DNA of 64,000 nucleotides, from contig BQUP01000009.1 of the NCBI GenBank assembly GCA_022835595.1, forward strand, positions 744,001 through 808,000, read 5' to 3'. The first letter of the stretch is position 1. Every line of letters begins with the position of its first letter. Source of the stretch: Cystobasidium ongulense (lineage: Eukaryota; Basidiomycota; Cystobasidiomycetes; Cystobasidiales; Cystobasidiaceae). The notes under the pieces were generated by a model that saw only the letters and a program-made list of their open reading frames with translations, ran no database searches and was not told where the DNA came from. A program made the translations under genes and the position numbers. Below are positions 1-17,258 of this stretch, piece by piece.

Positions 1-12
1 TTGACTATTAAC

Positions 13-1737
13 TCACCACTCTTGCGCTGCTAATTCAACAATTGGCCGAATCGCCTTTCTACCTTTGCCGTCTCCTTGCTGTTTCCACGCATATCGCTGA
101 TGTCCAAAATCTTTCTCATCATGCCACACTTTAAGCTTCAAGTCCTTACTCTTCTCAAGCGAGTTCCTAATCTTGTGATAGATCCGCTCGGCCTCATCTT
201 CCGTCAGACGCTGACCATGGCGGACAAGCAAGATGATCTCGCGGACTTTTGTACCATCGTCTTCTTTCGCTTTCGTCAGGATGACTAGCACATCGATCTG
301 ATTCTCCCTGAGGAACGTTCGACTTTCACTTGCCCAGCCTTCTTGCGTCTTGTTATGCGCCTTTTCGATGAGTTTTGAAAAGCGGTGTGGGACATTCGCA
401 TAACCAATATGCACGGGCTTTGTCGAGTTGTACATGATATCGCCCTTGTAATCACGCCTGTAATAAATTGCAAAGATGAGCGTGGAAAGCAGTCATATCC
501 ATGTTTCGCAGAACAAAGATCTTACTGGTACAACTGCGTGATATTCAAATCTGCAATATCGTTCTGTGCCTTCTTCATTGTCTTTTTGATCCTTTTTGAT
601 TCCTTCTTGATGTCACCTTTGCTATACGAGGTATACGGGAAGATGCCATTCGCAGCTTGCGTATCTTCAGGGCTGACCTTCTTCTCCTTCAAGCCGTTCG
701 TGTCAAGGGACATAGTGGCGAACAAAATGTCTGCTAGCTCCTTTGGGATATCTGATCCGTGCTGACTTTGCTCGTCGAGAAGTAGCTGGGTCACAAGCGA
801 GGTAGTCGAGCCGATCATCTTGATGATCCCTGTTCGCATATTGGGAATTAGTCGACGGCCCCTTTAGAGAATGGCTGATGGTTGGCTTACGTGGGTTGGC
901 AGTCGCGTTGCGGCCACGGTCGGCATGACTGACACAGAGCAAATGTGAGCCCGCCCAGTCTAAGTACGCATACTTGATAATCTATAGACCTACTGATCTA
1001 TCATGCCTAAGAGGGGCACATTCTGCCAGTAAGAAAGCGGTCGATTGTGGTCGGTAAGCACAATTCCCCTGATCATCTGCGATAGCTTGTATCGGGGCCA
1101 CTTCAATTGGTCGAGAGCTGTTCGTAAAATGTGTAAAAGCTTGTCAACAGATGCAAAATCATGGACGTAGGTACACATGTACTCACTTAGGATCGCCTCA
1201 TGCACAGGCTGTAGTTTCGCATCATGCATGAGCAGCTTATTCTCTGGCCTGTAGTCGAGGACTGCGCTTTTGATCTGCAACAGGGCGACTGCTTTGAGTG
1301 GGTCGATATTGCGGTGTGAGAGCCAGTAGGCAGTGGCCAGCGATGAGACCAGGGAGTCGGTGTCTGTCAGTGTTACGCAGAAGGGGCAAATTAATCGACA
1401 CAGAGTCTTCAGTGTTGCGACATGTGAGGGATGCTCGCCCACCTGCTGCCTCGTTGCCTACGACCACGACCCACTCGTTGGCGCCTCCTTTTTCCAAACT
1501 CTCCAAGAAGCCGTCTTTGGCCTGCCGACACCACTTGTCGAATGCGGCTTCTTTGTGAGTGAACGGCGCGAGGGTATTGCTGCCGCGACTAAAAGCATCC
1601 TGTATGATTTCTGGGCCTTTTTGGAATACTTGTTGCTGTTGGAAAGGATTCGAATAGATGAAGGTGTTTGCGGGCAGAGCTAGAGCTTGAGTGGCGAAAA
1701 ATGCACTCGCGGCAATCAAGCTGCTAGAGAGCTTCAT
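13..1737 (-). CDS. PPX1: Secreted or vacuolar exopolyphosphatase, PPX1-like (DHH/DHHA2 family)
   Basis: Enzymes of this family release phosphate from the ends of inorganic polyphosphate. Six exons fit in phase: 1443-1737, 1187-1363, 994-1117, 891-928, 526-829 and 13-457, giving about 460 aa against about 400 for yeast PPX1. All four DHH-family motifs are visible: GNEAADTDS (motif I), VLTDHNRP (II), DHHAD (III, made only by joining exons 3 and 4) and SLDTNG (IV). The DHHA2 part carries IDVLVILT and ends AAQEW. The reading starts MKLSSSLIAASAFF..ALA, a convincing signal peptide that cytosolic yeast PPX1 lacks. An in-frame ATG at 1806 would add 24 residues and hide it, but the ATG at 1737 has a good context (AAAAAAATG). 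A GTGAGT overlaps the stop, so a further exon beyond the left edge cannot be excluded. The gene is divergent from the phosphate exporter. Family assignment is strong; location is inferred from the leader alone. Confidence 0.85.
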
Positions 1738-2763
1738 TTTTTTGAGAAGAGTGCTGGCTTGCTGTGAAGATGGAAGAAGCCCAACGTCAGCTGCGTTGCC
1801 TGCCATGTTCAGGGGCTGACTTGTTGACCCAAGCCTACATTCCCGAAGTCGTTCTTCTTCTGGTCGGTGACGCTATTTGTGGCTGCACGTGCAGAAAATG
1901 AAGCCAGGTGGTCGCGTGCTGCTGGCTTCAAGAAGGAACGACTTGCAGTTTAGGGAATATCGCGGAGAGAGAAGAATTATTGTAGCTGTGGTGATGGAGA
2001 AGAGAGAGTCTGAGAGCAGCAGTTGGATCAATGAAAGTCGGAGTTGAGGAGCACGAATGTTTCCACTGCAGATTCATGGGGCTCTTTTTTCAATGAGACC
2101 GGCGACATGTACGCATGACGGTCATCTTCCGACGCTTAACTTACCGTCACTCGCGAGTCACTGATCAAAGAGTATTGAATAAGTAGTTATGGCACGTTTA
2201 TCGTCATTGATGAAGGAGAAAGCTGCTCGGTTATTAACAGCTCAAAGCAGTGGTGGAGGAAAAGTTAGGCGCGGCTGAGTCAGCAGTTGCTGCTTGTGGG
2301 AGCACGGCGGTCAATGATCAAGTTGCGCTACAGTGGGGACTGGGCAGGGAGCACATTGCGGATGCGCGTGTACATGGGACAGCCGTGATTGGCCTGACCT
2401 GTGAGTTGCTGTCCTCGCCGACAGTCGTGGTCCTCGTGGAGTTGGCAAATATATACACTGCAGTGTGCAGTAGACCGAGAGCGGTCACTTCTTCCCTATC
2501 CACCTCGACACCACAGGTCCATGACGCAATGGGCTCACGGCTATCCTATCACGGTCACGAGCAAACGAGCGCGGCCTTCACCATGAGCGACTTGTCCTGG
2601 TCATTTCCATCTTGATATGGCTTCCGTCGAGGCAAGAAGCCTGATCGACGACGACGGACTTATAGAGAGCCAGCAAGAGGCATACACCGCCTAAGTCCAG
2701 TGCTGCCAGCAGGCCAAGCTTCGAGGTCTCGGTAGCACTCGTGTCGCGATCTGCTACGCTAGC
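1738..2763. promoter_or_regulatory. Shared promoter region of the exopolyphosphatase and SPX-EXS exporter
   Basis: About 1 kb between two divergent start codons. It holds a perfect 12-bp palindrome CTGCACGTGCAG at 1883-1894 with core CACGTG, and a CACGTT at 2193-2198. Both match the core and variant sites bound by Pho4-type bHLH factors in yeasts. One CACGTG in 1 kb can arise by chance, so this is suggestive only. The open frames in this stretch (for example 2250-2615) look like noise. Confidence 0.4.
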
Positions 2764-5700
2764 ATGGGCTTCAGATACCAGTTGGAGCAGGAAATTGTCG
2801 AGGGTGAGCTTCTTCGCTCGTGCTGCGATGCGGCCGCCGCACAGCTGGCTGCAGCTGCAGCTGCACCTGGCCCATCCTTGTCTGCTTATGGCTTTCCACG
2901 AGCCGTCCTTAGCTGGCATCTGAATCTGTCCTTTCGCTCCCGCCCATACCTGGCTCTGCTTCCTACTACTGTGTCGCCACCAATACTACATAAACCATTA
3001 ATGATATACCGTACATCCGCAACCACTCACAGAATGGCGAACACGCTACCTCGACTACCAGAAGGTGAAGAGTCTCATCGAGAAGAGCAGTAATAGTGCG
3101 ACTGGGACAAACACCGAAGATCCTCAAGCTTGTAGGGGCAAAAGCGTGCTCAATGAGCAGGGGCAGCAACAGCAAAGAACAAGGTCAACCGATTCTCTTT
3201 CTTCTTCGCTCACCATCAGAGGTAATGCTCGCAATGCGGCTGGGCACAACAGCACCGCTCAGGCGTCAGTGGCCGAGCGCGCACCCAAGCGGGATAGCAA
3301 GATTCAGGAAATATTTGATTACCTTGATGAGCAGCTAGAAGATGTGAGTGCCCTTGATTTAGTTCACTCAAAACCGGTCCACAAGCTGACGTCCGCTCCA
3401 CCTTCAGGTCGAAGAATTCTACCAGGACCTGCTTGGAAAGGCAAAGTCTCGCTGCAAGCTGTTGGAAGATCAGATATCGCAGCTGACGGAACACCGAGAC
3501 GAATGGCTGCATCTCTACCGAAATGTTCCTTTCTTTGTTCAACCTTTTCTGCGCGCCACGAGACTCCTCAAGGAGCGAATCTTACCCGAGTCTGGGGAAG
3601 GCGCAGAACAGAAAAAGATCTTCAGGTCCGATTACAAGCGCGAACCGCACCGCTTTGGCGCTGCAAATCGCAAAATCGAATTGGCACTCTGTGAATACTA
3701 TGTCTATCTCGGCTCAATCTCCAATTATTGCTTGATCAATAAAGCAGGCTTTGACAAGTGCGCTAAGAAGATCGAGCTGGATTTGGGTGTAGTCGACTGC
3801 AGACCAATGTACCGAATTAAGGTCGACGACATGGGCTTCGGACACGCATATGCGCTCGCAAATCTGCAGACAAAGACGGAGATGCTATACGCACAGAATT
3901 TCGAAGACCAGCACTCCCCTAAAAAGGCGGCTCACAGGCTGCGCGCTCTGACAAGACCAGGCGAAGCGCACTCCTTTGCTGTTGCTCGGGCGGGATTCTT
4001 CCTCGGGATGGCAGTGGTGATGACAACCCTGGGAACCATGAACGGTAAGCCCACACTCAGTTAGTATAGGTGTCACTAAGAGATGCTAAGCACTGCGCTT
4101 GACAGCCCTAAATCCGACAGTTGGCCACATGCTGCCGCAGCGTAAAACACGTGAGTTCGGTCTTGAATTTGTGCCGATTATTGGAAAGTTAGCCGACAAA
4201 ATTGCCTGCTACAGTTCTCCAAATATACTCTGCCTTTGCTCCTCCTGTGCTCCTCGCGCTCAGCATGGGCCTCAATCTAATAGCTTGGGCGAAGGCACGA
4301 ATCGATGTTCCCGTTGTCTTCTCTTTCGATAGACGGACGCATATCCATCGGCATGCTTTCTTCGAACTTCCAGCTTTCTTTCTTTTCACACTGTCCCTCT
4401 GTTTCTACGCTTCTTTCAGCGTCTGGACCTGGACTCGAACTTTTCCACCTACCATTTGGCCAATGTTGTGGCTTGTCAGTTCGCTGGTGCTCTTGACCAA
4501 TCCTCTTCCATACTTTCACTACCACGCAAGATGGTGGCTGGTTAGAAGCACCTTCAGGGTGTTTGCGTCCGGATTGATCCAAGTCGAGGTGAGCACCGTC
4601 TCCTATGCCAGGAATCTCACAAAAGTAGGCTGATGGCGGCTGCGCTTGGCAGTTCCGCGACTTTTTCCTCGGAGATCAATTCTGCTCCCTCCACTACTCT
4701 ATGGAACAATCTTACGGTGAATTTCGTTCGGCTCGCTCGTTATGCACGAGTGCTGCTGACCTTTACCGCATCTCCCATTCAAAGTCCTGGGCTGCGCATA
4801 CAAACATCACTTTAACCCGAACGTAGCCGAGATGTGCGATACCACCTCAACGTGGATCACGCCAGTGCTTGCGGCCCTTCCATTCATGTTCCGGACTGGA
4901 CACTCGATCCGCCGGTACTATAATCATCCAGAAACAAAGTGAGGCTTTGCACATCATTGATTGAACAGTCTAGTCTGCTAATCATTCATTATGTCGCGCT
5001 TTCAGGACCCACATTCTGAACATTTCAAAATACACGCTGAGCGTCGTTTATCAGTTCCTGTATTACAATTGGCGCATCAATGGTCCGTACATTGTCGATC
5101 GATAAAGCTTTCAGTGTTCAGTGAGCTGACGAGGTGCAAATTGCAGGCTCAGGTGGCGGTACACGATTTGCCTGCTTCATTGTTGCTGGAATCGCGAACG
5201 AGGGTGCCAGCTACGTGTGGGATATTCTGATTGACTGTAATCTGCTGCAAAGGGGTGCAAAGTACCCACTGTTGCGCGACCAAATGTCATACTCTCATCC
5301 ATGGGTGAGCGATTCTCACATTCATCTCCTAATAATATCAAAACCTCGCTAATGCGGGAATCAAGGTCTACTACGCTGCTATGTTTCTTAATCTACCTTT
5401 GCGATTCAGTTGGCTTCTTCACTTGTCACCTTCGCCAGGTCCAAGTATTATTGGTCCTCTCAACGCTGGCATTGATGTAGCCCGCCGATGCATGTGGAAT
5501 GTGAGTCGATGATCTCTGTACAGCGGCAGAGGTGACGTGCCTGTCGTTGACACGGCCTTCCAACTACGCTGCAGTTCTTCCGGATCGAATCAGAGCACCT
5601 TGGTAACGTTGACGACTTCCGTGCCGTGCGAGATTGCGTAAGTGCAAGCTCCGCCTGAGCCATGTCATTCGGGGTCCAAGAGTAGCCTATGCAATGCGCT

Positions 5701-5930
5701 AATACCCCCTCTTTCCGTTCTGTAAGCCCTTGCCGTACGAGAACACGGAAATGCCTCGGTCCACTCGACGGTCTGATCCTCCTGATCAAGACAACGCAGG
5801 TTCAGCGCACAGTAGCGATAGTTCAAAGTCGACAGACGACGATGAGAGAACCCCCCTGGCCAGCATCGGTCGCAACTCGCCAATGAAACGCAGGGGCCGC
5901 AGATCATCATACGGCACTATATCAGTATAG
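2764..5930 (+). CDS. SYG1: SPX-EXS phosphate exporter, SYG1/XPR1 family
   Basis: This membrane protein family senses inositol pyrophosphates through an N-terminal SPX domain and exports phosphate through a C-terminal EXS domain. Twelve exons join in phase: 2764-2803, 3033-3343, 3408-4044, 4106-4150, 4215-4588, 4653-4716, 4785-4938, 5006-5082, 5147-5304, 5366-5500, 5575-5637 and 5727-5930, about 753 aa. Splicing the tiny first exon to the second gives MGFRYQLEQEIVEEWRTRYL, the classic SPX start. NKAGFDKCAKKI is the lysine-rich last SPX helix. Several hydrophobic helices follow (for example QIYSAFAPPVLLALSMGLNL), then the EXS signatures FRDFFLGDQFCSL, RRYYNH, YYNWRIN, YVWDILIDCNLL and FFRIESEHLGNVDDFRAV. 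The tail of about 60 residues is rich in Ser, Asp and Arg and is probably a phospho-regulated cytosolic end. The acceptors of exons 10 and 12 are AAG rather than CAG. Confidence 0.92.
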
Positions 5931-6765
5931 AGGTACTTCTGCATACCATAGTAGACTCTTCCTGCATTTCTCCAAATGTATCATACCCAATATCATAGAG
6001 CTGCACTGCGTGTGAGAGAGTCCTCAGTTGGTGGCGTGTATAGAGTCTAACATATAGAGACGGCGAGCAGTCGTTCTGTCGGTCTTGTGGAGCTGCCCGT
6101 CAGTGGCCAGCGTGGTCTTGTCTTCTTGACGATGATGGCGATGGTCGCAGCGACAAGCGTTGAAGTAGTCGGAAGTTGATCTGTCGCCGACTCCCTAGCA
6201 ATAATGGAGGCGTCTGAAGCTGGAAGTGACGGTCGCAGTGGGGAGAGTAGTGATATCAGCGGTAGCAATCAGTCTCTGCGCAGTCGTTGGCAGGAACAGT
6301 CTCTGCTGTCCAGAAGAGAGCAGCATGGAGAGGGAAGCGAGGTCGATTGCCTTTTGCAAGGACGATGTAAAATCAAAGCAGCAGGCAGACCGGCTTGCCT
6401 TTGCAGCCTCATCTCCTTCTTACAAGACTGATTCGTGCACATGTGCTGATGGCTGGCAGTGTGGTACTGCTGGGCTGGACGGCTCAGTGCGGAATCGCCC
6501 AGAGCCATGCGCGACGATGCCATGCCCCGAGTCGCAATGCTCACAGTCAGCTGCTTGACTGACAGACAGGCAAACCTCAGTCGACTGCAGTTGCGACTGA
6601 CCAGCTAGCTACTGGACTGCCGCATACCCGACCGTCGCGTTAAACGGGCCCGACGATACTGACCTCGATAGTTCACTGATTGCACTATTGTTCGGCCCAT
6701 CAAGTGCAGGACGACTTGGTGCATCACTGCCCAGGAACTCAGCTTACGGGCCTTGTATCGACGCT
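5931..6765. other. Intergenic region, no gene seen
   Basis: It holds the 3' flank of the SYG1-like gene and the presumed promoter of the first F-box-like gene. The overlapping open frames here lack splice-compatible structure or recognisable motifs. No RNA gene or repeat was found. Confidence 0.4.
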
Positions 6766-7912
6766 ATGTCTTCAAGAATGCTTGCATTCTATGCCTCTTT
6801 TCAGGCGCGGCTGCTGTCTGGGCGACGACACATACACGGTTTCGCAAAGACAAGGAGGAAGCTTCCATTCTTCATCCTATCAATAATCGTTACTCTTTGC
6901 GACAACGAAACAAGAATGAATTGCGCGCTCTTAAATCGAGAAGCGTACACCTACTTGCGGCATTGTCTATATCGCAATCTGGTAATCTCGTCCAGGGCAC
7001 AGCTTGGACTCTTCCAAAGTTGGATCCTCGAACAAATTCGAAGAGGTGAGCTCCTACGCAGTCTGCGAAGCAGACGATGGACATGTATCTGCTAACAAAG
7101 AAGGACCACATCCTTTTCCAGGGAAGGCAAAGGACACTTTGCGGTTTGTACAAACGTTTCAATATACTCCAGTCATCGAAACACAAACATCGGCAGGACG
7201 TAACGTGCTTCGGCAGCTTCAAAGAATCCCAGGAATCGGCGAAAATGGCAAGCATCTCTTTCCGAATCTTGAAAAAGCAAGTTTAAGTTTGTTCGTCAAC
7301 AACGGCGCGTTCAACTTGACCGATCCAGACAATAAAGGGCAAAATAGCTTCTTGTCTCAAGTTCGGATGCTATCTTTACACTACTTGGCCTGCCATAGTG
7401 CTGGCGCGCATCGTCTACCTCTCAAGTACTTGGGGCTAGCGAACATTACTTCGATCCAAGTCAGACCGCCTATAGGAACAGGTCCATGCCCTAACATAAT
7501 TCCACTATTGCAAGATGCTTATCACCTGCAGTGGATAAGGGTAGACTTGCAAGACCATCTAGACTTCTGGAATCAGTCTTCTGGGACTTCCCGGCGCCCT
7601 ATGCATGTCGGTTCTTACGCACAAGACGTTTTAGGGATGATCCACGATTTTATGAAGTCATCAGCAACGTCTTCATCCAGTCTGCGGACGTTGATATTCA
7701 AAATTCGAAGAGATCAAGCTTATTTTCAGGAGTATATAAAACTTGTTTTGCAGGACCATTCTGATGTCACCCAGGACAACTGTAGTCGGGTGCAGTGGGA
7801 GATCAATGATTCAGCACCATCGGCTCCGGTTCTTTCCGCTGTGCAAGCTAACGGCATGGATGACCATGCCCGAGCCTCCGCAGAAGCTCGTTCGCGCTGT
7901 GTATTGATGTAA
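6766..7912 (+). CDS. F-box-like protein with C-terminal CaaX box (array member 1)
   Basis: Most divergent member of a five-gene tandem family. Two exons, 6766-7045 and 7122-7912, give about 356 aa. The phase-1 intron carries a GTGAGC donor, and its CAG acceptor follows a TTTTC tract. Exon 1 holds an F-box-like helix block (ILSIIVTLCDNETRMNCALL then LRHCLYRNLVI) that lines up with the same block in the neighbours. Exon 2 aligns with theirs over KDTLRFVQTFQYTPV and LQRIPGIGENGKHLFPNL and then becomes leucine-rich. The last four residues are CVLM, a canonical CaaX prenylation signal of the farnesyl type; no other member has it. F-box proteins recruit substrates to SCF ubiquitin ligases; that role is inferred from a weak domain match. 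The start is uncertain (6766 or 6778). Confidence 0.6.
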
Positions 7913-8450
7913 ATTCCTTGATCAACCTAAGATAATATGGACGAAAAGTAGACCTTGTACTTTATGACAGTTTCATTGGCTCCTCCTCTCTCTCTCTCTG
8001 TCTTGAATTTTCAATCCAACATCTAGTGGCGATTGCAGCTGGATACAATGAGGGACACTTTCTGACATCGCTGTGAACATACTCCGTGCTGGCGGAGTAT
8101 GTTCACAGCCGGAGTTGAAAGACGTTTGGAGTCGGGCCATGCATGACGGACATCGTTCACATACAGTACCGACTGACTTGACGCCTCTGTCGGACAAGCT
8201 AGTCCTGATCTGTGCGGTAGGCCAGCTTGGATGGGCTGCTTTCCTAGGCGCTCTCGGTCCCTTTAATCATAGCGGGAGTTGATTTTTCTCCTTAAGCAAG
8301 CGACCGGAATGAGGGAAGAAAACGGCTCCCGAGGATCCTATCACTCTGAAATCCGATAGAGCTGGTACGTCACAATTGCAGGCGGGCATACTTGACAGAC
8401 TTATCTGATCCAACCGACAGTACGGACTTGACATTCTTGTCAGACATGTC
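7913..8450. other. Intergenic region with duplicated promoter and a perfect hairpin
   Basis: It carries a CT-dinucleotide run near 7985-8000 and the hairpin at 8070-8109. From about 8107 to 8256 it matches 11834-11966, upstream of array member 4, so members 2 and 4 share duplicated 5' flanks. Confidence 0.6.
8070..8109. repeat. 17-bp perfect inverted repeat with 6-nt loop
   Basis: The left arm at 8070-8086 (GCTGTGAACATACTCCG) is the exact reverse complement of 8093-8109, with the loop TGCTGG at 8087-8092. The paralogous flank near 11825 keeps the downstream sequence but not the two arms. No ORF or known element is attached. Confidence 0.9.
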
Positions 8451-9711
8451 ATGCCTTGCTTCAAGTCAGCCACTACTCTGAAGGATGATCCAAGCTATGA
8501 TGAAGGACCTTCCTCTGTTATCCTTCCCAACTCGCATCGACTGCCTCTGACACCAGGCTGGATGCGGAGTCCAACTATACGCGAGATGAAGGCAGCACGG
8601 CCGAATGTCGATCCAAGCCAAGGAATCGCCAACAGTAGACATGTAGCCGCGCGCTCCTTGGACAGGTATACCATCCTTAATATCGCCGAGATGTGCGATA
8701 CACCTACAAAGGCCGCGTTGTGTGGATTGTCAAGAGAGCTACGGGGTCCTCTGCAGAGGTCACTCTTTCGGTGTGTAGATATTCAAGGATCCAATCAGTT
8801 AGATGCGTTTGTTCGTTGTGTCGGGGACGTACACCAGGAGAATGATACTGACAGCGAGAGTACCAGTAAGTCAGGACATGATCCAGTCTCAACTCATACA
8901 CTGATCTTCATTCAACCGGCAGATCGGATGCGTACCTTGCTAGCCCAAGTCGAATGCTTCGTTTTTCGCCCATTCATACCATGCCGCCTGTTCCTTTACT
9001 ATACCCCCGAAGACAGTCTGTTAAGGCTCTGTCAGATCCCTCGAAGAACGAAGACTGGGAAGGCGATCTTTCCCAGACTCCAGAAAGCGAAATTAGCTTT
9101 CGATAGACCTCCCTATCCAATGGCCGCGTTGGTAGACTCTCACACTCATCCTCGTTCAGGTGGAAGCAACTGCTTTCTGTCGGTTGTCAAACAGCTGTCA
9201 ATCGATAAGCATACTGTAGAAACGTTTCAGAATGCATGCCCAGCCTTGGAAGATCTGGGCATCCACGATGTGACTTNNNNNNNNNNGACAGGCTCCCCAT
9301 GCTGTGGTAGCACGTTCCTTGAGAGGACAAACATCACTGGAAACTGTCGTTCTCCACATCGAAGACCAACTCACTTTCAAACAAGGGATCTCCGGACGAA
9401 GACGAAGGATCGAGCACATCGGAACCTACGCCAAGGAGGTAGCAAACTTCCTTCGGGCATTCACGGAGAGCGGGAGATGGCCTAGACTTGCAAGAATCGT
9501 GATGGTTGTAGATGACGACCAAGCACTTGACTTGATTCCTTGTCTTGCGCAGGCCTTATGGAAGGGCATGGACTCTGCGCGAGTATATCCTGGGATGCCA
9601 TCCCCAGGGGAGGTGTGGAGGTGGATGGCCGAGAGGCTAGTCATCAAATCCGCCAGTGCAACTGAGCGGCCTCTGCTTGATATATCGAAGTGCTACTTCG
9701 GGATGATGTGA
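8451..9711 (+). CDS. F-box-like protein, array member 2 (interrupted by assembly gap)
   Basis: The exons are about 8451-8865 and 8923-9711, with a phase-1 intron (donor A|GTAAGT at 8866, acceptor CCGGCAG ending at 8922). The intron is 57 nt with no in-frame stop, so retention would keep the frame open. The F-box-like block reads YTILNIAEMCDTPTKAALC..LFRCVDI. Exon 2 shares RMRTLLAQVECFVFRPFIPC, KAIFPRL.KAKLAFDRPPYP and FQNACPALEDLGIHDVT with members 3 and 5. The frame changes across a 10-N gap at 9277-9286. Alignment with member 3 predicts about 24 real bases there, which would restore the frame, so the break is probably an assembly artefact. The start Met is uncertain; the N-terminal extension is longer than in members 3 and 5. 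Confidence 0.65.
9277..9286. other. Assembly gap (10 Ns)
   Basis: A run of exactly ten Ns lies inside array member 2, in sequence shared with members 3 and 5. This is typical of a placeholder where near-identical repeats could not be joined. Comparison with 10906-10935 suggests the missing stretch is about 24 nt. Confidence 0.97.
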
Positions 9712-9714
9712 AAT

Positions 9715-10171
9715 AGACGGTGCTGGGCCACGAGGGCTAGCTGTACTGTTATAGTACATATTGCTGTGGCGCCTGATTTATTGAGATCGTTGAAATGCCA
9801 GCATGTACCGTATCTAGAATATAAGAACAACACCTCTGCGATTTGTGCGAGCAGAGAGAAAGATACCGCTCTTCAGTTGGGACGGGGCTCCTGAGGTAAG
9901 GGAGCGAACAAAGTAGGAAGCGGTTCCCGAAGATCCCGACAAGTCTCATTCCGATAGGCCTCGTATGCCAGAGTTGCACTTGCGCGTACTTGCCAGACTC
10001 ATCGTCTGATCGACGGTACGGGCCTTACGGACTGACTTGACGTTTGTTCTTGCTTGACAAACTAGCGCCTAACTGGAACGATACCCAGGATTTGATGCAA
10101 ACTTTCATTTCTCATACCTTTCAACTCACCTCGAGCCTTGAGATCAGGCTGACAGAGAAATCCATACGGAC
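9715..10171. repeat. Duplicated intergenic segment, copy A
   Basis: It sits downstream of member 2 and upstream of member 3. It is nearly identical to 13315-13766, at a spacing of about 3.6 kb. It holds the hairpin TGTACT-GTTAT-AGTACA at 9742-9758, which is kept in copy B. It is the presumed promoter of member 3. Confidence 0.85.
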
Positions 10172-10413
10172 ATGACAGCACCAAGCGCGAAGGCCAGCCG
10201 GCGTCTGGATAACAATCTAATTTTGGTCGTTGCCGAGATGTGCGACGCGCCTACGAAGGCCGTGTTGTGCAGATTAGGCAGACGATTGCGGGGTCCTCTG
10301 CAAATACTGCTATTTCGATGTGTAGACATTGGAGGACCAGACCAGCTGGATGCGTTTGCTCGGTGTGTCAGGAAGGTATCCAACAACGACGACGCTGAGA
10401 GTGAGATTGAGAA

Positions 10414-10454
<41 letters not shown>

Positions 10455-11419
10455 AGGTATCCAACAACGACGACACTGAGAGTGAGAGTGAGATGAGTGG
10501 CTCGGTTTCTATATCAGCTTTGAAAACTGAGTTTTATTATTGTGATTGTGCAGATTGGATGCGCACTCTGCTAGCCCAAGTCGAATGCTTCGTTTTTCGC
10601 CCATTTATACCCTGTCGTCTTCTCGTTAATTATACACAAAAGGACAACTTGTTGAAGCTCTGTCGAATTCCTCGAACAACGAAGAATGGAAAGGCGATTT
10701 TTCCCAGACTCCACAAGGCGAAACTAGCTTTCGATAGACCTCCCTATCCACTGGCCGCGGTGGTAGACGCTCACGCTCGTGTTCTTTCAGCTGGAAGCAA
10801 CTGCTTTCTGTCGGGTGTCAAACAGCTGTCAATCGATAAGCATACTGTAGAAACGTTTCAGAATGCATGCCCAGCCTTGGAAGATCTGGGCATCCACGAT
10901 GTGACTTCAGTACACCTCGCTTGCGGATATCAACAGGTTCCCCATGCTGTGGTTGCACACTCCTTGAGCGGACAAGCATCACTGAAGACTGTTGTTCTTC
11001 ACCTGGAAGACCAACTCACAGTGAAACAAGGGAATTCCGGACGAAGACCAAGTGTCGAGAACATGGATTCCTATGCCACAGAGGTAGCAGAGTTCCTAGC
11101 AGAGTTCCTTCGCTCATTCACAGAGGTAGCATCGTTCTATCGGAGATTCACGGAGGTGGAGCTATGGCATAGACTTCCACGCACCGTGCTGGATGTGGGT
11201 CACGAGCAAGCACTCGATTTGGTTCCCAGTCTGGCAAAGGCTCTTGCCAAGTGTGTGCTGTCTGCATGGACGTACGGTCGCATGCCATCCCCGTCGTGGC
11301 CAGAAGAGAGGTGGGTCTTGCTGGCTACGATGCTGGTGGTCCGATCTGGCAGTGCTTCTGAGCGACCTCTGCTGGGCATGCCGTGGTCTTCTGCTTTGCA
11401 GCTAGATAGTGTAGAATAG
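10172..11419 (+). CDS. F-box-like protein, array member 3
   Basis: The frame is open from 10172 to 11419, but comparison with members 1, 2 and 4 indicates a phase-1 intron ending at 10553 (GATTGTGCAG) with a donor at about 10482 or 10488. The protein is about 390-415 aa depending on splicing. The F-box-like block is LILVVAEMCDAPTKAVLCRL then LLFRCVDI. A Ser-Glu repeat encoded by (GAGAGT)n follows. Exon 2 is a leucine-rich region with VKQLSIDKHTVETF, CPALEDLGIHDVTSVHLACG and SLKTVVLHLEDQL. Relative to member 5 it has a local tandem duplication near 11090-11160 that repeats the EFLRSFTEV segment. It is nearly identical to member 5 with 5' and 3' flanks included, so the duplication is recent. 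SCF substrate adaptor function is an inference. Confidence 0.7.
10397..10454. repeat. (GAGAGT)n microsatellite at the exon-intron border
   Basis: Six-base units encode Ser-Glu if translated. A shorter block at 10478-10493 lies next to the likely donor. Unit number differs from the copy in member 5. Confidence 0.85.
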
Positions 11420-12039
11420 ATTTTGTGTGGCTTCTGTCAGTAGGCAATTAGACGGCGGGATGGAAAGCGGGAATGGAAAGCGGGAATGGAAAGCGTTAGT
11501 GAGGGCGTCAGTTGTAAATCAGTTGCATGTCCTCGTGCTGCTCGACGGTGCTGTATGGTCTTGCTGCAGTAATCTTGAACATTTGGTCTTGATATTGCAA
11601 CACTGGGGGCCAGGCAGGAGCAGGGTCGGCTCTTCCAAAAGGCAGCATCGAGGTGTGGTGATGGTGCTCTAACCAGCCCTTGCTAGAGGCTTGAAAGCAT
11701 TAACACTTGTTGGTGGAAGGTGTTGAAGCAAGTTGTACACTTTTATTCGATTGCCTTTTCAAGATCTCGAGCTGCAAGCAGGAAGGGTAGCTAGCTATAG
11801 ACTGGCTTGCCTTTGCATACTCCGTTCTGTCCGGAGTTGAAAGACGTTGGAGTCGGGCTCACGTATGACGGACAGCGTTAACACACAGTACCGACTGACT
11901 TGACGCCTCTGTCGGACAACCTGGCCCTTGTCTGTGCGGTGGACCAGCTTGGATGGGCTGCTTTCCCGCTTGCGAAAGGGTCGACTTGGCTAACCTCTCG
12001 AACATACTACGGGCAAAGGTATTACATCACTCAGGCGAC
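11420..12039. other. Intergenic region between members 3 and 4
   Basis: It begins with the 3' flank shared with 15000-15120, including tandem copies of GGGAATGGAAAGC. It ends with the promoter-like block 11834-11966 shared with the region upstream of member 2. The ORF at 11427-11672 lies across the repeat and looks like noise. Confidence 0.5.
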
Positions 12040-13250
12040 ATGAGCGCATCAAGCGAACATGAAATTCAAGGAGGGAGCGCTGGAAGATGGGAAGACTCGT
12101 GCCTTTTGAACAGCGATCTAATCATCAAAGTTGCCCAGTTCTGCGATACGCCCACGAAGGCCGTAGTGTGCAGGCTGAACAGTCAACTAAGGGATTCTCT
12201 GCAAATGGTGCTATTTCAGCGTGTAGAGATCCGAGAGCGGCATCAGTTGGATGCCTTCGCTCGCTGCGTCCAAGAGGTTAGCAATGACATTCAGGACGGA
12301 CGTGAGCGTGAGTCAGGAGACAAAACAGTCCGATTTCTTCTGTAGAGGAATGCTAAATCTTCCGTCAACGAACAGATCGAATGCGCATTTTGTTGGCTCA
12401 GGTTCAGTGCTTCATTCATCGCCCGTCTATATCTCCTCTTTGGTCTCAGATGTACCACCCAGAAAGCACTATCTCCAAGCTCAGCCGTATTCCCCAAACA
12501 ACAAAGAGTGGAATGGTGATTTTTCATGAACTTGTACAAGCGAGATTGACCTTCACGCCGAATTTCTACCTGGAACCTCTACCTAATGTGGAAACTCCTC
12601 CTCCAGGTGTTCTACCTAGTGAAGGCTACGAAACGTGCTTTCTGGCGAATGTCAAAGTTCTGCGTTTGGACGAATTCGCTCCTCAACCCATCCTCGATTT
12701 AGCGCCAGCTTTTCGAATGCTGGGAATCCGAAATTTGGTTTCAGTGACTCTCGTTTGCAGTTTTGGGCAGGCTCCCTATGACGAGGTGCCATTGTACTTC
12801 AGATCACAGCGAGGATTACAAAGTGTGACAATACTTGACCAAGACCACTGGAATTTTGATGGCAGAGTTTACTACCAGACGACTAGAGATCTGGAGAGAT
12901 ATTCGGGCGATCTAGAAGAGTTCCTCCTGTTCTGGAACATGGAAAGTGTATGGCCGGACCTCGCAGAGCTCGTCCTCCATACAGCTCGAGACGAGTCCCG
13001 GGAATTGATGCCAAGTATTGAAGAGGCACTCTTACACCGTGCTTCGTCAGCGCAGTGGAACTTCGTGACCAGCAGATTCTGCTACAAATTCGGCTCGAGC
13101 GGTCCTGTCCAGCGCCCTTTTTGGGGGAAGGTACATCCAAGTCCGCCCAGCGACGACGATTCCTCCGACGATGGAAGTTCGGATGACTCTCGCGACAGGG
13201 CCCCCAGCAACGATGACCACGCAGATCTGGATGCCTCAGCAGTAAATTAG
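12040..13250 (+). CDS. F-box-like protein, array member 4
   Basis: The exons are 12040-12307 and 12376-13250, about 380 aa. An in-frame stop inside the intron (near 12343) proves that the region must be spliced here if the gene works. Donor C|GTGAGT and acceptor AACGAACAG give phase 1, like the other members. An upstream in-frame ATG at 11953 is less likely, because the ATG at 12040 aligns with the start of member 3. The F-box-like block is DLIIKVAQFCDTPTKAVVCRL then VLFQRVEI. Exon 2 starts RMRILLAQVQCFIHRPS. The body is much more diverged than its duplicated flanks. The C-terminus is an acidic Asp-Ser tail (SDDDSSDDGSSDDSRD) absent from the other members. Confidence 0.65.
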
Positions 13251-13314
13251 TGGCCACATTCTCGATAGGGATTGCGACTAATACGCCGCAATGTAGCAAT
13301 TGGATAGTTTGGCA

Positions 13315-13766
13315 GAGGCCACGAGGGGCTAGATGTACTGTTATAGTACATATTGTTGCGGCGACTGATTTGATGAGATCGTTGAAATGCCAGCATGTAC
13401 CGTATCTAGAACATCAGAACAGCACACCTCTGCGATTTGTGCGAGCAGAGAGAAAGACGCCGCTCTTCAGTTGGGCCGGAGACTCCTAAGGTAAGGGAGC
13501 GAACAAAGTAGGAAGCGGTTCCTGAAGATCCCGACAAGTCTCATTCCGATAGGCCTGGTATGCCAGAGTTGCACTTGCGCGTACTTGCCAGACTCATCGT
13601 CTGATCGACGGTACGGGCCTTACGGACTGACTTGACGTTTGTTCTTGCTTGACAAACTAGCGCCTAACTGGAACGATACCCAGGATTTGATGCAAACTTT
13701 CATTTCTCATACCTTTCAACTCACCTCGAGCCTTGAGATCAGGCTGACAGAGAAATCCATACGGAC
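13315..13766. repeat. Duplicated intergenic segment, copy B
   Basis: Near-identical partner of 9715-10171. It includes the hairpin TGTACT-GTTAT-AGTACA at 13334-13350 and the same 5' flank up to the start codon of member 5. Confidence 0.85.
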
Positions 13767-13990
13767 ATGACAGCACCAAGCGCGAAGGCCAGCCGGCGTC
13801 TGGATAACAATCTAATTTTGGTCGTTGCCGAGATGTGCGACGCGCCTACGAAGGCCGTGTTGTGCAGATTAGGCAGACGATTGCGGGGTCCTCTGCAAAT
13901 ACTGCTATTTCGATGTGTAGACATCGGAGGACCAGACCAGCTGGATGTGTTTGCTCGGTGTGTCAGGAAGGTATCCAACAACGACGACGC

Positions 13991-14030
<40 letters not shown>

Positions 14031-14999
14031 AGTGAGAGTGGGACTGAGAGTGAGGGTGAGAGTGAGAGTGAGAAGGTTTCTAATAACAACGACACTGAGA
14101 GTGAGAGTGAGATGATTGGCTCAGTTTCTATATCAGCTTTGAAAACTGAGTTTTATTATCGTGATTGTGCAGATTGGATGCGCACTCTGCTAGCCCAAGT
14201 CGAATGCTTCGTTTTTCGCCCATTTATACCCTGTCGTCTTTGCAAGGGTTATACAGCGGAGGATATCTTGTTGAAGCTCTGTCGAATTCCTCGAATAACG
14301 AAGAATGGAAAGGCGATTTTTCCCAGACTCCACAAGGCGAAACTAGCTTTTGATAGACCTCCCTATCCACTGGCCGCGGTAGACATTTGGGCTCTCACTT
14401 ATACTCCTTCAGGTGCAAGAAACTGCTTCTTGTCGGGTGTCAAACAGCTTTGGATCGATAAGCATACTGCAGAAACGTTCGAAAATGCGATCCCAGCCTT
14501 GCAAAATCTGTGCATCGGACAGGTGACTTCAGTACACCTCGCTTGCGGATATCAACAGGTTCCCCGTGCTGTGGTAGCACGTTCCTTGAGCGGACAAACA
14601 TCACTGAAGACTGTTGTTCTTCACCTGGAAGACCAACTTACAGTGAAACAAGGGAATTCCGGACGAAGACCAAGCATCGAGAACATGGATTCCTATGCCA
14701 AGGAGGTAGCAGAGTTCCTTCGGACCTTTACGGAGCTCGAGCGATGGCCTAGACTTGCAAGCACCGTGCTGGATGTGGGTCACGAGCCAGAACTCGAGTT
14801 GGTTCCCAGTCTGGCAAAGGCTCTTGCCAAGTGTGTGCTGTCTGCATGGACGTACGGCCGCATGACATCCCCGTCGTGGCCAGAAGAGAAGTGGAACTTG
14901 CTGGCTTCGATGCTGGTGGTCCGATCTGGCAGTGCATCTGAGCGACCTCTGCTGGGCATGCCGTGGTCTTCTGCTTTGCAGCTAGATAGTGTGGAATAG
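13767..14999 (+). CDS. F-box-like protein, array member 5
   Basis: Near-identical to member 3 from start to stop, with the same N-terminus (MTAPSAKASRRLDNN) and C-terminus (SSALQLDSVE). The probable phase-1 intron ends at 14172 with a donor at about 14101 or 14107; the whole span is also open. The Ser-Glu microsatellite at about 13991-14074 is longer and more interrupted than in member 3. The two copies differ mainly in patches, for instance around 14249-14275 and 14380-14430, which suggests gene conversion or local selection. As for the other members, only the F-box-like block and leucine-rich content support a ubiquitin-ligase adaptor role. Confidence 0.7.
13991..14074. repeat. (GAGAGT)n microsatellite in member 5
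   Basis: Same repeat as at 10397-10454 but longer, with interruptions such as GGGACT and GAGGGT. A short second block at 14096-14111 contains the candidate donors. Confidence 0.85.
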
Positions 15000-15333
15000 A
15001 GGTTTGTGTGGCTTCTGTCAGTAGGCAGTTAGACGGGGGGATGGAAAGCGGGAATGGAAAGCGTTGGCGAGGGCGTCAGTTGTGAATCAGTTGTAGGGCA
15101 TCGTGCTGCTCGACGGTGCTGTGTCGTATTGCTGCCAGTATGTATTGATCTCGAAGAAATGATGGAAATGCCACCCGCTGCGATTGGAAGAGAGCAAGAG
15201 AGCCCGCTTGCTTGTTCGAGAAAGAAAGTCGACACGGGTGTCTGGCTCTCACCTTTTCGCAGTGGACAGACTCGAGCAGACCAGGACAGCAGCAACCCCC
15301 CGTCCACACTAGACACACGCACGTCCAGCAGCC
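15000..15333. other. Duplicated F-box flank abutting the MPP-beta promoter
   Basis: 15000 to about 15120 matches the 3' flank of member 3. The remaining 210 bp or so is the presumed promoter and 5' UTR of the peptidase gene. The long open frame 15054-15824 runs through that gene's introns and is not a gene. Confidence 0.5.
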
Positions 15334-17258
15334 ATGGCTTCCCGACTTCTCGTCCGAAATGCGGCAAAGCAGCTGAGGTCAAACTCGATATTCAAGCCGG
15401 TGGGTCGCATGCACGGCGTGGACAGCGAGCAGAGCTGACAGAGTGCTCCACACCACACCTATGCACGCCTCCGTCCATTGTGACTTTGCTGGAACCGCTC
15501 CAGGCTTCCGCCCTGCGACCCTATGCTACCCAGATACCCTCTGGATCGCACACCCAGATCACGACGCTGCCCAACGGCTTCACCGTCGCTACAGACGCTG
15601 CTCCGTATGCGCAGACTGCGACTGTTGGTGCGTCAGGCTCCTCCTCTCGCCGATATCGCTCCCAACACCTGGCTAATTCGTCCGATCTCGCTCCCACAGG
15701 CGTCTGGATTGATGCTGGAAGCAGAGCAGAGAGCAACGCTACAGAGGGCGTCGCTCACTTCCTAGAGCATATGGCTTTCAAGGTGGGTGGATTTATTCAT
15801 ATTCGTGGACCTGCTCTGAGCTGACCTTCTTCGCTCTCACACTCCCCGTCGTTGTGCTTGCTCGCGCCATTCACAGGGCACTGGAAGAAGATCGCAACAC
15901 CAGCTAGAGCTAGAAGTAGAGAACCTAGGAGCTCACTTGAACGCATACACATCAAGAGAACAGACAGTATACTATGCAAAGTCATTCAAAAAGGACATTG
16001 GCAAGACAGTCGACATCATCTCTGACATTCTACAAAATTCAAAACTAGAGGAATCTGCTATTGAGAGAGAAAGAGATGTCATCTTGAGAGAACAAGAGGA
16101 GGTGGACAAAATTATGGAAGAGGTCGTCTTTGATCACTTGCATGCCGTCGCTTTCCAGGGTGAGTCAGTCTTTGGCGCAAGGCTTTTGCTCGCTCGTCTC
16201 GGGGAGTTAGACCCTCTCTTCGAGCAGGATCACAGAGGAGTCTCTTGCGAACTCAATACTGACAATGCTCCTTTCCGCATTCCTATGATTTGCAATTCAT
16301 CGCTTAAATGCCAACAGGCCAACCTCTCGGCCGAACAATCCTCGGACCCCGCAAGAACATCCTCTCCATCCGCAAGTCCGACCTCCAACACTACATCAAC
16401 GAAAACTACACCGCCGACCGCATGGTCCTCGTTGGATCCGGTGGCGTAGAGCACGAATCCCTCGTCCAACTCGCCTCGCAACATTTCGGTGAGATGCAAT
16501 CCTCAACCAAGCCACTCCGACTTGGAGGAGCCAAGAAGACGGGCTTTGTTGGATCAGAAGTCAGAGTTCGTGATGACACCATGTCTACACTCAACTTGGC
16601 TATCGCATTCGAAGGTGTCGGCTGGAACTCACCAGACTACTACCCCATGCTCGTCATGCAATCCATCTTTGGCAACTGGGATAGATCACTAGGCGCCTCA
16701 CCCCTTCTCTCTTCACGACTATCACACATTATCCAAACCAACAACCTAGCGAACAGCTTCATGTCATTCTCAACTTCATATTCCGATACAGGATTATGGG
16801 GTATCTACATGGTCTCTGAAAACTTGACGAATTTGGATGATTTGGTACACTTCACAATGAAAGAATGGAGAAGAATGTCGACTTCACCCATGGAAGCAGA
16901 AGTTGAGAGGGCAAAATCACAATTAAAAGCTTCTTTATTATTAGGTCTAGATGGAACTACTGCTATTGCTGAAGATATCGGTCGTCAATTGATTACTTCT
17001 GGAAAGAGACTTACCCCTAAAGAGATTGAAGCTGCTGTTGATGGTGTCACTGTCAATGATATTCAGAGATGCGCTCAGAAATACCTGTGGGATAAGGATA
17101 TCGCTATCGCTGCTGTCGGTCCTACCGATGGGTGAGTGCATTCTGCCAGACAGACTTTTGCTCCGCCTGAACGTCGCACTGATTCAACATTGTGTCTTTC
17201 TCACAGTCTCCTCGACTACAACCGCATTAGAAACGATACAGCTACATTGCTGTACTAA
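15334..17258 (+). CDS. MAS1: Mitochondrial processing peptidase, beta subunit
   Basis: Catalytic subunit of the matrix protease that removes presequences from imported proteins. Six exons: 15334-15399, 15504-15627, 15700-15782, 15877-16159, 16318-17131 and 17207-17258. The N-terminus [17 protein letters not shown] is basic and free of acidic residues, as expected for its own presequence. The zinc site HFLEH (inverted HxxEH) sits in exon 3, and [20 protein letters not shown] is the typical downstream block with the distal Glu ligand region [12 protein letters not shown]. The glycine-rich loop that marks the alpha subunit is absent. The C-terminus [16 protein letters not shown] matches the family end. 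The 3' half of the coding sequence is visibly more AT-rich than the 5' half. Confidence 0.93.

What the first reader, a model, noticed from the sequence alone, without database searches (positions are those of the whole stretch)
13..5930. Divergent polyphosphatase / phosphate-exporter pair with candidate Pho4 sites
A DHH exopolyphosphatase and an SPX-EXS exporter lie head to head with 1,026 bp between start codons. The shared region holds a 12-bp palindrome with a CACGTG core at 1886-1891 and CACGTT at 2193-2198, the core sites of yeast phosphate-response bHLH factors. Polyphosphate breakdown and phosphate export are two steps of one pathway, so co-regulation under phosphate status is a reasonable hypothesis. 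I know of no described linkage of these two genes. Two short motifs alone are weak evidence.
Basis: partly seen in the sequence, partly recalled or inferred. Interest (0 to 1): 0.72.

Follow-up and report, generated by a model that had tools for sequence, protein, structure and literature searches.

The report
Head-to-head polyphosphatase and phosphate-exporter genes
A fungus carries a gene for a polyphosphate-cutting enzyme, probably a secreted or vacuolar one, back to back with a spare phosphate-exporter gene, and the DNA between them holds a site that resembles the control sites of its own phosphate genes; the genes are real, shared control is plausible but unproven.

Summary
A six-exon DHH/DHHA2 exopolyphosphatase gene (13-1737, minus) and a twelve-exon SPX-EXS gene (2764-5930, plus) are divergent, with 1,026 bp between start codons, CTGCACGTGCAG at 1883-1894 and CACGTT at 2193-2198. 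Both proteins look intact. Two things change the interpretation. The phosphatase begins with a signal-peptide-like segment, as does a paralogue elsewhere in the genome, so it probably acts in a lumen or outside the cell; its phosphate would not feed a cytosol-to-outside exporter. And both genes are extra copies: another PPX and another SPX-EXS gene lie unlinked. I calibrated the motifs on this genome. PHO84, PHO89, PHO81/GDE1-like and VTC4 (4 of 4) share GCACGTTCG upstream; the pair lacks it. A site model from those genes still scores the pair like them (0 of 125 background windows as high; 0-4.8% across model widths), but a CACGTT-only model does not single it out (14 of 146). The pair sits inside a tandem array of unrelated genes, which keeps chance adjacency open. 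No fungal relatives were available, so conservation is untested. Co-regulation is partly supported, most plausibly for the phosphatase side.

The parts
13..1737 (-). DHH/DHHA2 exopolyphosphatase gene, 460 aa; introns at 1364-1442, 1118-1186, 929-993, 830-890, 458-525
   Evidence: Model; Pfam DHH and DHHA2; best PDB match 2qb6 'Exopolyphosphatase' 5.2e-21
1678..1737 (-). Signal-peptide-like N-terminus MKLSSSLIAASAFFATQALA; an in-frame upstream ATG near 1805 (MAGNAADVGLL...) is a possible alternative start
   Evidence: Read; highest 15-residue hydropathy 1.82 here against 1.32 in the rest; the paralogue L066 begins MLVHSLAAYSLAAATLAAALP
1738..2763 (.). Shared intergenic region, 1,026 bp
1883..1894 (.). 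12-bp palindrome CTGCACGTGCAG with CACGTG core 1886-1891, 146 bp from the PPX start codon
   Evidence: PHO-site model score 14.8, the region's best
2193..2198 (+). CACGTT, weak by the genome's own PHO-site model (score 7.0)
2764..5930 (+). SPX-EXS gene, 753 aa, 12 exons (2764-2803, 3033-3343, 3408-4044, 4106-4150, 4215-4588, 4653-4716, 4785-4938, 5006-5082, 5147-5304, 5366-5500, 5575-5637, 5727-5930)
   Evidence: Model; Pfam SPX and EXS; best PDB matches SLC53A1/XPR1 5.9e-48 and 'Protein SYG1 homolog' 9w0x 7.9e-47
7115..7909 (+). Right-hand neighbour: member A of a tandem family; its closest copy found (61% identical) flanks the pair on the left, in L051 6902-7795

Best explanation
A head-to-head pair of extra phosphate-metabolism genes. 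One encodes an intact DHH exopolyphosphatase that enters the secretory pathway and trims polyphosphate to phosphate in a lumen (vacuole, acidocalcisome) or outside the cell. The other encodes a second SPX-EXS phosphate channel/exporter, gated through its SPX domain by inositol pyrophosphates. The CACGTG palindrome, 146 bp from the phosphatase start codon, is most likely a site for a CACGTG-binding bHLH factor of Pho4 type that switches the phosphatase on when phosphate is scarce; the exporter may respond through the same region. Shown here: gene structures, domains, kept active-site and transport residues, extra-copy status, resemblance of the site to the genome's own PHO sites. Inferred: secretory location, catalysis, transport, bHLH binding, response to phosphate, any effect on the exporter.
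For: Domains and gene models. Metal-site motifs GNEAADTDS, TDHN, IDHH and LDT line up with solved exopolyphosphatase 2qb6. The nine transmembrane phosphate-coordinating residues named for SpXpr1 (PMC13083964 section 7) are all identical here, and so is F427. Signal-like N-terminus in this phosphatase and independently in its paralogue. PHO-site model from PHO84, PHO89, PHO81/GDE1-like and VTC4 upstream regions: pair 15.6 bits against 13.7-16.1 for those genes each left out in turn, 9.3-11.7 for six other phosphate-gene upstream regions, 0 of 125 background windows as high; 1 of 300 Markov sequences of the same region. Model widths: 0 to 4.8% of 2,490 overlapping windows as high by sum.
Against: GCACGTTCG, present upstream of 4 of 4 reference genes, is absent from the pair; nearest copies on the contig are 119 and 216 kb away. 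With a CACGTT-only model 14 of 146 background windows match the pair. By best single site, 25% (bare core) to 0.5% (14-bp model) of windows reach the pair. The second site, CACGTT at 2193, is weak. Of the seven other genomic copies of the 12-mer, ten neighbouring ORFs scanned gave no phosphate gene. The unlinked SPX-EXS gene has no CACGTK in 1,001 bp upstream; the unlinked PPX has two CACGTT but no CACGTG and no GCACGTT. None of the bHLH genes could be named Pho4: of two tried, one gave Pho4 only at E 0.46.
Confidence: 0.42

Rival explanations
1. Chance neighbours. Two duplicated genes came to lie head to head in a stretch that was rearranged by growth of a tandem gene array; the E-box and CACGTT are incidental.
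For: The pair is an island between members of one tandem family: three coding copies to the left and five to the right, all on the plus strand, the two nearest being 61% identical. CACGTG alone is in 15% of windows. The other secretory phosphatase (C1) and the other EXS genes (C5, C6) are not linked to each other. With a recalled gene number near 6,500, any two of about 25 phosphate genes would be head-to-head somewhere in roughly 2% of genomes (inference).
Against: Summed PHO-site score reached by 0 of 125 background windows.
Confidence: 0.38
2. The palindrome is a real site for another bHLH factor (Cbf1-, USF- or SREBP-like), unrelated to phosphate.
For: Seven bHLH places in the genome, among them a Cbf1-like basic region (L047, my reading) whose surroundings hold five CACGTG. 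The 12-mer is a perfect palindrome, whereas the reference PHO genes share the asymmetric GCACGTTCG.
Against: The 5' flank of the palindrome is G, not the T that I recall for Cbf1, and the word GCTGCACGT also occurs upstream of PHO84 and PHO89.
Confidence: 0.15
3. The phosphatase is an ordinary cytosolic Ppx1 and the hydrophobic start is an annotation accident.
For: Yeast Ppx1 is cytosolic (recalled). No transcript evidence; an in-frame upstream ATG exists.
Against: The first exon holds no other ATG before the catalytic motif than 1737; the paralogue has an independent hydrophobic start with small residues where cleavage is expected.
Confidence: 0.2

Closest known systems
Yeast-type exopolyphosphatase Ppx1 (PDB 2qb6)
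   Same: DHH and DHHA2 domains, aligned metal-site motifs, E 5.2e-21
   Different: N-terminal extension of about 85 residues that starts like a signal peptide; about 26% identical to the other PPX of the same genome
XPR1/SLC53A1, S. pombe Xpr1, S. cerevisiae Syg1 (SPX-EXS family)
   Same: SPX plus EXS; the nine transmembrane phosphate-coordinating residues and F427 of SpXpr1 identical
   Different: A second SPX-EXS copy in the genome, about 34% identical to the other one over 638 aligned positions that include introns; SpXpr1 N-loop Y160 aligns with K194 in a weakly aligned stretch
Fungal PHO regulon promoters (Pho4 sites CACGTG/CACGTT; PMC10437122, passages read)
   Same: Both core words present; summed site score in the range of the genome's PHO84, PHO89, PHO81/GDE1-like and VTC4 upstream regions
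   Different: Lacks GCACGTTCG, which those four have
Predicted-secreted exopolyphosphatases in rust fungi (PMC9370660, Table 3 row seen)
   Same: Exopolyphosphatase listed among secretory/effector classes of basidiomycetes
   Different: No sequence compared; gene linkage not discussed in the passages read

Membership tests
DHH-family exopolyphosphatase (Ppx1 type) | DHH plus DHHA2 domains | tested here: met
   Both above Pfam cut-offs
DHH-family exopolyphosphatase (Ppx1 type) | Metal-site motifs (GNExADxDS, DxN, DHH, DT) | tested here: met
   Alignment with 2qb6; motif meaning recalled
DHH-family exopolyphosphatase (Ppx1 type) | Polyphosphate hydrolysis | not testable with these tools
   No assay
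DHH-family exopolyphosphatase (Ppx1 type) | Cytosolic, no signal peptide (as in yeast Ppx1, recalled) | tested here: inconclusive
   Start looks like a signal peptide by hydropathy and by its paralogue; no signal-peptide predictor, no transcript
SPX-EXS phosphate exporter (XPR1/Syg1) | N-terminal SPX and C-terminal EXS | tested here: met
   SPX profile matched over positions 1-182 of 340
SPX-EXS phosphate exporter (XPR1/Syg1) | Phosphate-coordinating residues of SpXpr1 | tested here: met
   Nine of nine transmembrane residues identical; of two N-loop residues D158 aligns with D192, Y160 with K194 (weak stretch)
SPX-EXS phosphate exporter (XPR1/Syg1) | Phosphate export | not testable with these tools
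   No assay
PHO regulon member (Pho4 target) | Pho4 core sites in the upstream region beyond chance | tested here: inconclusive
   Sum score: 0 of 125, 0-4.8% by model width; CACGTT-only model 14 of 146
PHO regulon member (Pho4 target) | The 9-mer GCACGTTCG shared by this genome's reference PHO genes | tested here: not met
   Absent from 1738-2763; none on the contig within 119 kb
PHO regulon member (Pho4 target) | Transcript response to phosphate | not testable with these tools
   No expression data
Conserved divergent gene pair | Linkage kept in relatives | not testable with these tools
   The genome has no relatives here; two scans of viral contigs found no relative of either protein; fungal collections not held

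The most novel reading that the evidence does not exclude
The pair is a two-gene module for polyphosphate mobilisation across an inner membrane: a lumenal, signal-peptide-bearing DHH exopolyphosphatase frees phosphate inside the vacuole or acidocalcisome, and the second SPX-EXS protein, sitting in that membrane rather than the plasma membrane, lets it out to the cytosol under inositol-pyrophosphate control, both driven from one Pho4-type site. That would be an EXS counterpart of the lumen-to-cytosol step that Erd1 performs at the Golgi and (recalled) Pho91 at the yeast vacuole.
Probability: 0.12. Interest if true: 0.65.

Novelty: new member of a known kind. Interest (0 to 1): 0.4.

Why it matters
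How fungi turn stored or external polyphosphate into usable phosphate, and where their SPX-EXS exporters act, is little studied outside two yeasts. A secretory-pathway exopolyphosphatase joined to a spare SPX-EXS gene gives one concrete, testable case. The genome's own candidate PHO box (GCACGTTCG upstream of 4 of 4 reference genes, 93 copies genome-wide) also gives a way to predict its phosphate regulon.

Tried and rejected
Hexamer counts alone: CACGTG and CACGTT are not enriched in the window, so they carry little weight by themselves.

Other copies of the 12-mer as a guide to function: I scanned ten ORFs chosen from the seven other loci (4 kb each); they gave an SDR enzyme, an OMP decarboxylase, an FHA protein, two matches below the curated cut-off (FAD_binding_4, AMP-binding) and five without a match. 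No phosphate gene among those ten; the remaining ORFs were not scanned.

More reference PHO genes: searches for BTA1-type DUF3419 and for phosphoesterase PF04185 found nothing in this genome, so the reference set stayed at four. Their start codons were set by eye from exon fragments, so 'upstream' limits are approximate; the PHO81/GDE1-like sites in particular may lie near or inside undetected 5' exons.

Naming the Pho4 gene: two of seven bHLH places were compared with PDB; one gave MAX, SREBP and Cbf1 first, the other Pho4 third at E 0.46. Not decided.

Relatives: none for this genome; viral contigs gave none for either protein. The genome-contig collection (bacteria and archaea) was not scanned. 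Rfam on window 1-16000: no match. Two intergenic ORFs: no Pfam family above cut-off. Structure prediction was not run: the proteins are spliced and so are not letter-for-letter translations of the DNA, which the tool asks for. The family search with DHHA2 missed the window's own gene, so its count was a lower bound; the protein search found three DHH genes.

Literature: searches were listings; none of the titles or abstract openings listed describes linkage of a PPX and a SYG1/XPR1 gene. Searches held no paper. In one search only 10 of 305 were listed and none of those held either gene term.

Full report
The observation. On the minus strand, 1737..13, a gene with five introns encodes 460 residues with DHH (8.2e-10) and DHHA2 (3.8e-8) domains; the best solved relative is exopolyphosphatase 2qb6 (5.2e-21). 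On the plus strand, 2764..5930, a gene with eleven introns encodes 753 residues with SPX (2.3e-17) and EXS (4.5e-82) domains; the best solved relatives are SLC53A1/XPR1 chains and 'Protein SYG1 homolog' 9w0x. Between the start codons lie 1,026 bp. They hold the 12-bp palindrome CTGCACGTGCAG (1883-1894) and CACGTT (2193-2198).

The two proteins look intact. Motifs GNEAADTDS, TDHN, IDHH and LDT of the phosphatase line up with 2qb6. For the exporter I used the phosphate-coordinating residues given for fission-yeast Xpr1 (PMC13083964; I read section 7 and passages). The nine transmembrane ones (D431, R479, R486, N499, K502, Y503, D547, R614, R621) are all identical here, as are F427 and R485; D489 is N and E631 is D. 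Of the two N-loop residues, D158 aligns with D192 and Y160 with K194, in a weakly aligned stretch.

The phosphatase is probably not cytosolic. It starts MKLSSSLIAASAFFATQALALPA: one basic residue, a hydrophobic stretch and small residues before LP. The highest 15-residue hydropathy is 1.82 there against 1.32 in the rest, and there are four N-glycosylation sequons and one cysteine. A search of the whole genome with this protein found three DHH genes: this one, one at C1:1982.8-1984.5 kb that is 30 to 48% identical by segment (41% over the last 148 residues), and one at C1:2857.9 kb (32% over part; 26%). The first paralogue also begins with a hydrophobic segment, MLVHSLAAYSLAAATLAAALP. Caveats: no signal-peptide predictor was available; an in-frame upstream ATG near 1805 would place 21 to 22 residues before the segment; and the third gene, which I call the ordinary PPX, also has an upstream in-frame ATG followed by a hydrophobic stretch, so its own location is not settled.

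Both genes are extra copies. EXS domains occur at three genes: C5 (with SPX), C6 (no SPX found; Erd1-like by that token) and the window's C9. The DHH and EXS genes elsewhere are on different contigs, so the linkage is not general for either family even in this genome.

Calibrating the motifs on this genome. I located PHO84-, PHO89- and VTC4-type genes and an SPX-ankyrin gene of PHO81/GDE1 type and took about 1 kb upstream of each (685 bp for the last), with start codons set by eye. One 9-mer, GCACGTTCG, is upstream of 4 of 4. It occurs 93 times in 19.77 Mb against 240 for the reversed control word; by chance all four genes would share a given word of this rarity with probability 5e-10, or 6e-5 after allowing for all 9-mers. 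I take it as the likely PHO box of this fungus. The pair lacks it; the nearest copies on the contig are 119 and 216 kb away.

Does the pair nonetheless resemble PHO promoters? A 14-bp model trained on the CACGTG and CACGTT sites of those four genes gives the pair a summed score of 15.6. The four genes, each left out in turn, score 13.7 to 16.1. Six other upstream regions (the other SPX-EXS, the other PPX, the secretory phosphatase paralogue with 898 bp, the SPX-RING gene, the SPX transporter and the EXS-only gene) score 9.3 to 11.7. None of 125 background windows reaches the pair by sum and 1 by best site; with 21 windows from loci picked for the 12-mer added, 2 and 3 of 146. Of 300 Markov sequences, 1 and 4. 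The result depends on model width: 4.8, 4.7, 0.7, 0.8, 3.6, 3.6, 2.5, 2.0, 0 and 0% of 2,490 overlapping windows by sum, and 25 to 0.5% by best site. A model of CACGTT sites alone gives 14 of 146. Requiring a G next to both core words, a rule chosen after seeing the sites, 17 of 2,450 windows qualify, 3 of 4 reference genes and the pair. Almost all of the pair's score comes from the palindrome (14.8); the CACGTT at 2193 scores 7.0. I read this as moderate support for one site, 146 bp from the phosphatase start codon, and little for a second. The finding was picked because it held such words, which inflates the apparent rarity.

The neighbourhood. The pair is an island in a tandem array. Protein-level matches put two members of one family at -1098..-205 and 7115..7909 (61% identical), and six members of a second, related family at -4526, -2898, 8922, 10550, 12372 and 14172, all on the plus strand (negative numbers: L051, left of the window). 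Pieces tested had no Pfam family above cut-off. Either the array grew around the pair or the pair moved into it; both favour a recent, perhaps accidental, neighbourhood.

Mechanism. A secretory phosphatase frees phosphate outside the cytosol. An XPR1-type protein in the plasma membrane drains the cytosol. Those are not successive steps for one pool, and in phosphate starvation one would expect the first on and the second off. So if the region is PHO-controlled, the phosphatase is the likelier target. The alternative that makes the two genes successive steps is an inner-membrane EXS protein that passes phosphate from lumen to cytosol, as reported for Erd1 at the Golgi (PMC5714488, abstract opening in the listing). 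That is the novel reading; nothing here tests the membrane.

Literature. Fission-yeast Xpr1 exports phosphate, while budding-yeast Syg1 had no demonstrated export (passages of PMC10704438 and PMC13083964). Pho4 sites are CACGTG or CACGTT (passage of PMC10437122). Cryptococcus polyphosphatases Xpp1 and Epp1 affect virulence; the paper's text has no 'signal peptide' and no 'secreted' (abstract and passages of PMC11977306). A table of enriched rust-fungus effector classes lists exopolyphosphatase (PMC9370660), so predicted-secreted forms have been listed before. I found no description of the linkage in the listings, of which I read only listings apart from the papers named.

Verdict. Real genes, correct coordinates, an unusual combination of two extra copies, moderate evidence for one PHO-type site, no evidence on conservation or expression. 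The phylum was not tested; the gene content is fungal.

Noticed in passing
L051 3475-7795 (left of window) and window 7115-14972: The pair is embedded in a same-strand tandem array of eight related coding copies (two of one family, six of another); four pieces tested have no Pfam family above cut-off and look F-box-like to my eye.
   Followed up: partly
L038 2792, L039 3413, L040 2371, L043 3843 (G000 C8, C3, C4, C2): Candidate PHO box GCACGTTCG upstream of VTC4, PHO89, PHO84 and a PHO81/GDE1-like gene; PHO84 and VTC4 share the longer word GCACGTTCGTGAAG. 93 genomic copies of the 9-mer give a candidate phosphate regulon.
   Followed up: partly
L066 900-2636 (G000 C1:1982.8-1984.5 kb): A second DHH exopolyphosphatase gene with a signal-like start, not linked to an EXS gene found here.
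   Followed up: partly
window 9277-9286: A run of ten N inside one member of the tandem array.
   Followed up: no
L047 1352-3152: Five CACGTG within 1.8 kb around a bHLH gene with a Cbf1-like basic region (my reading); possible self-regulation.
   Followed up: no
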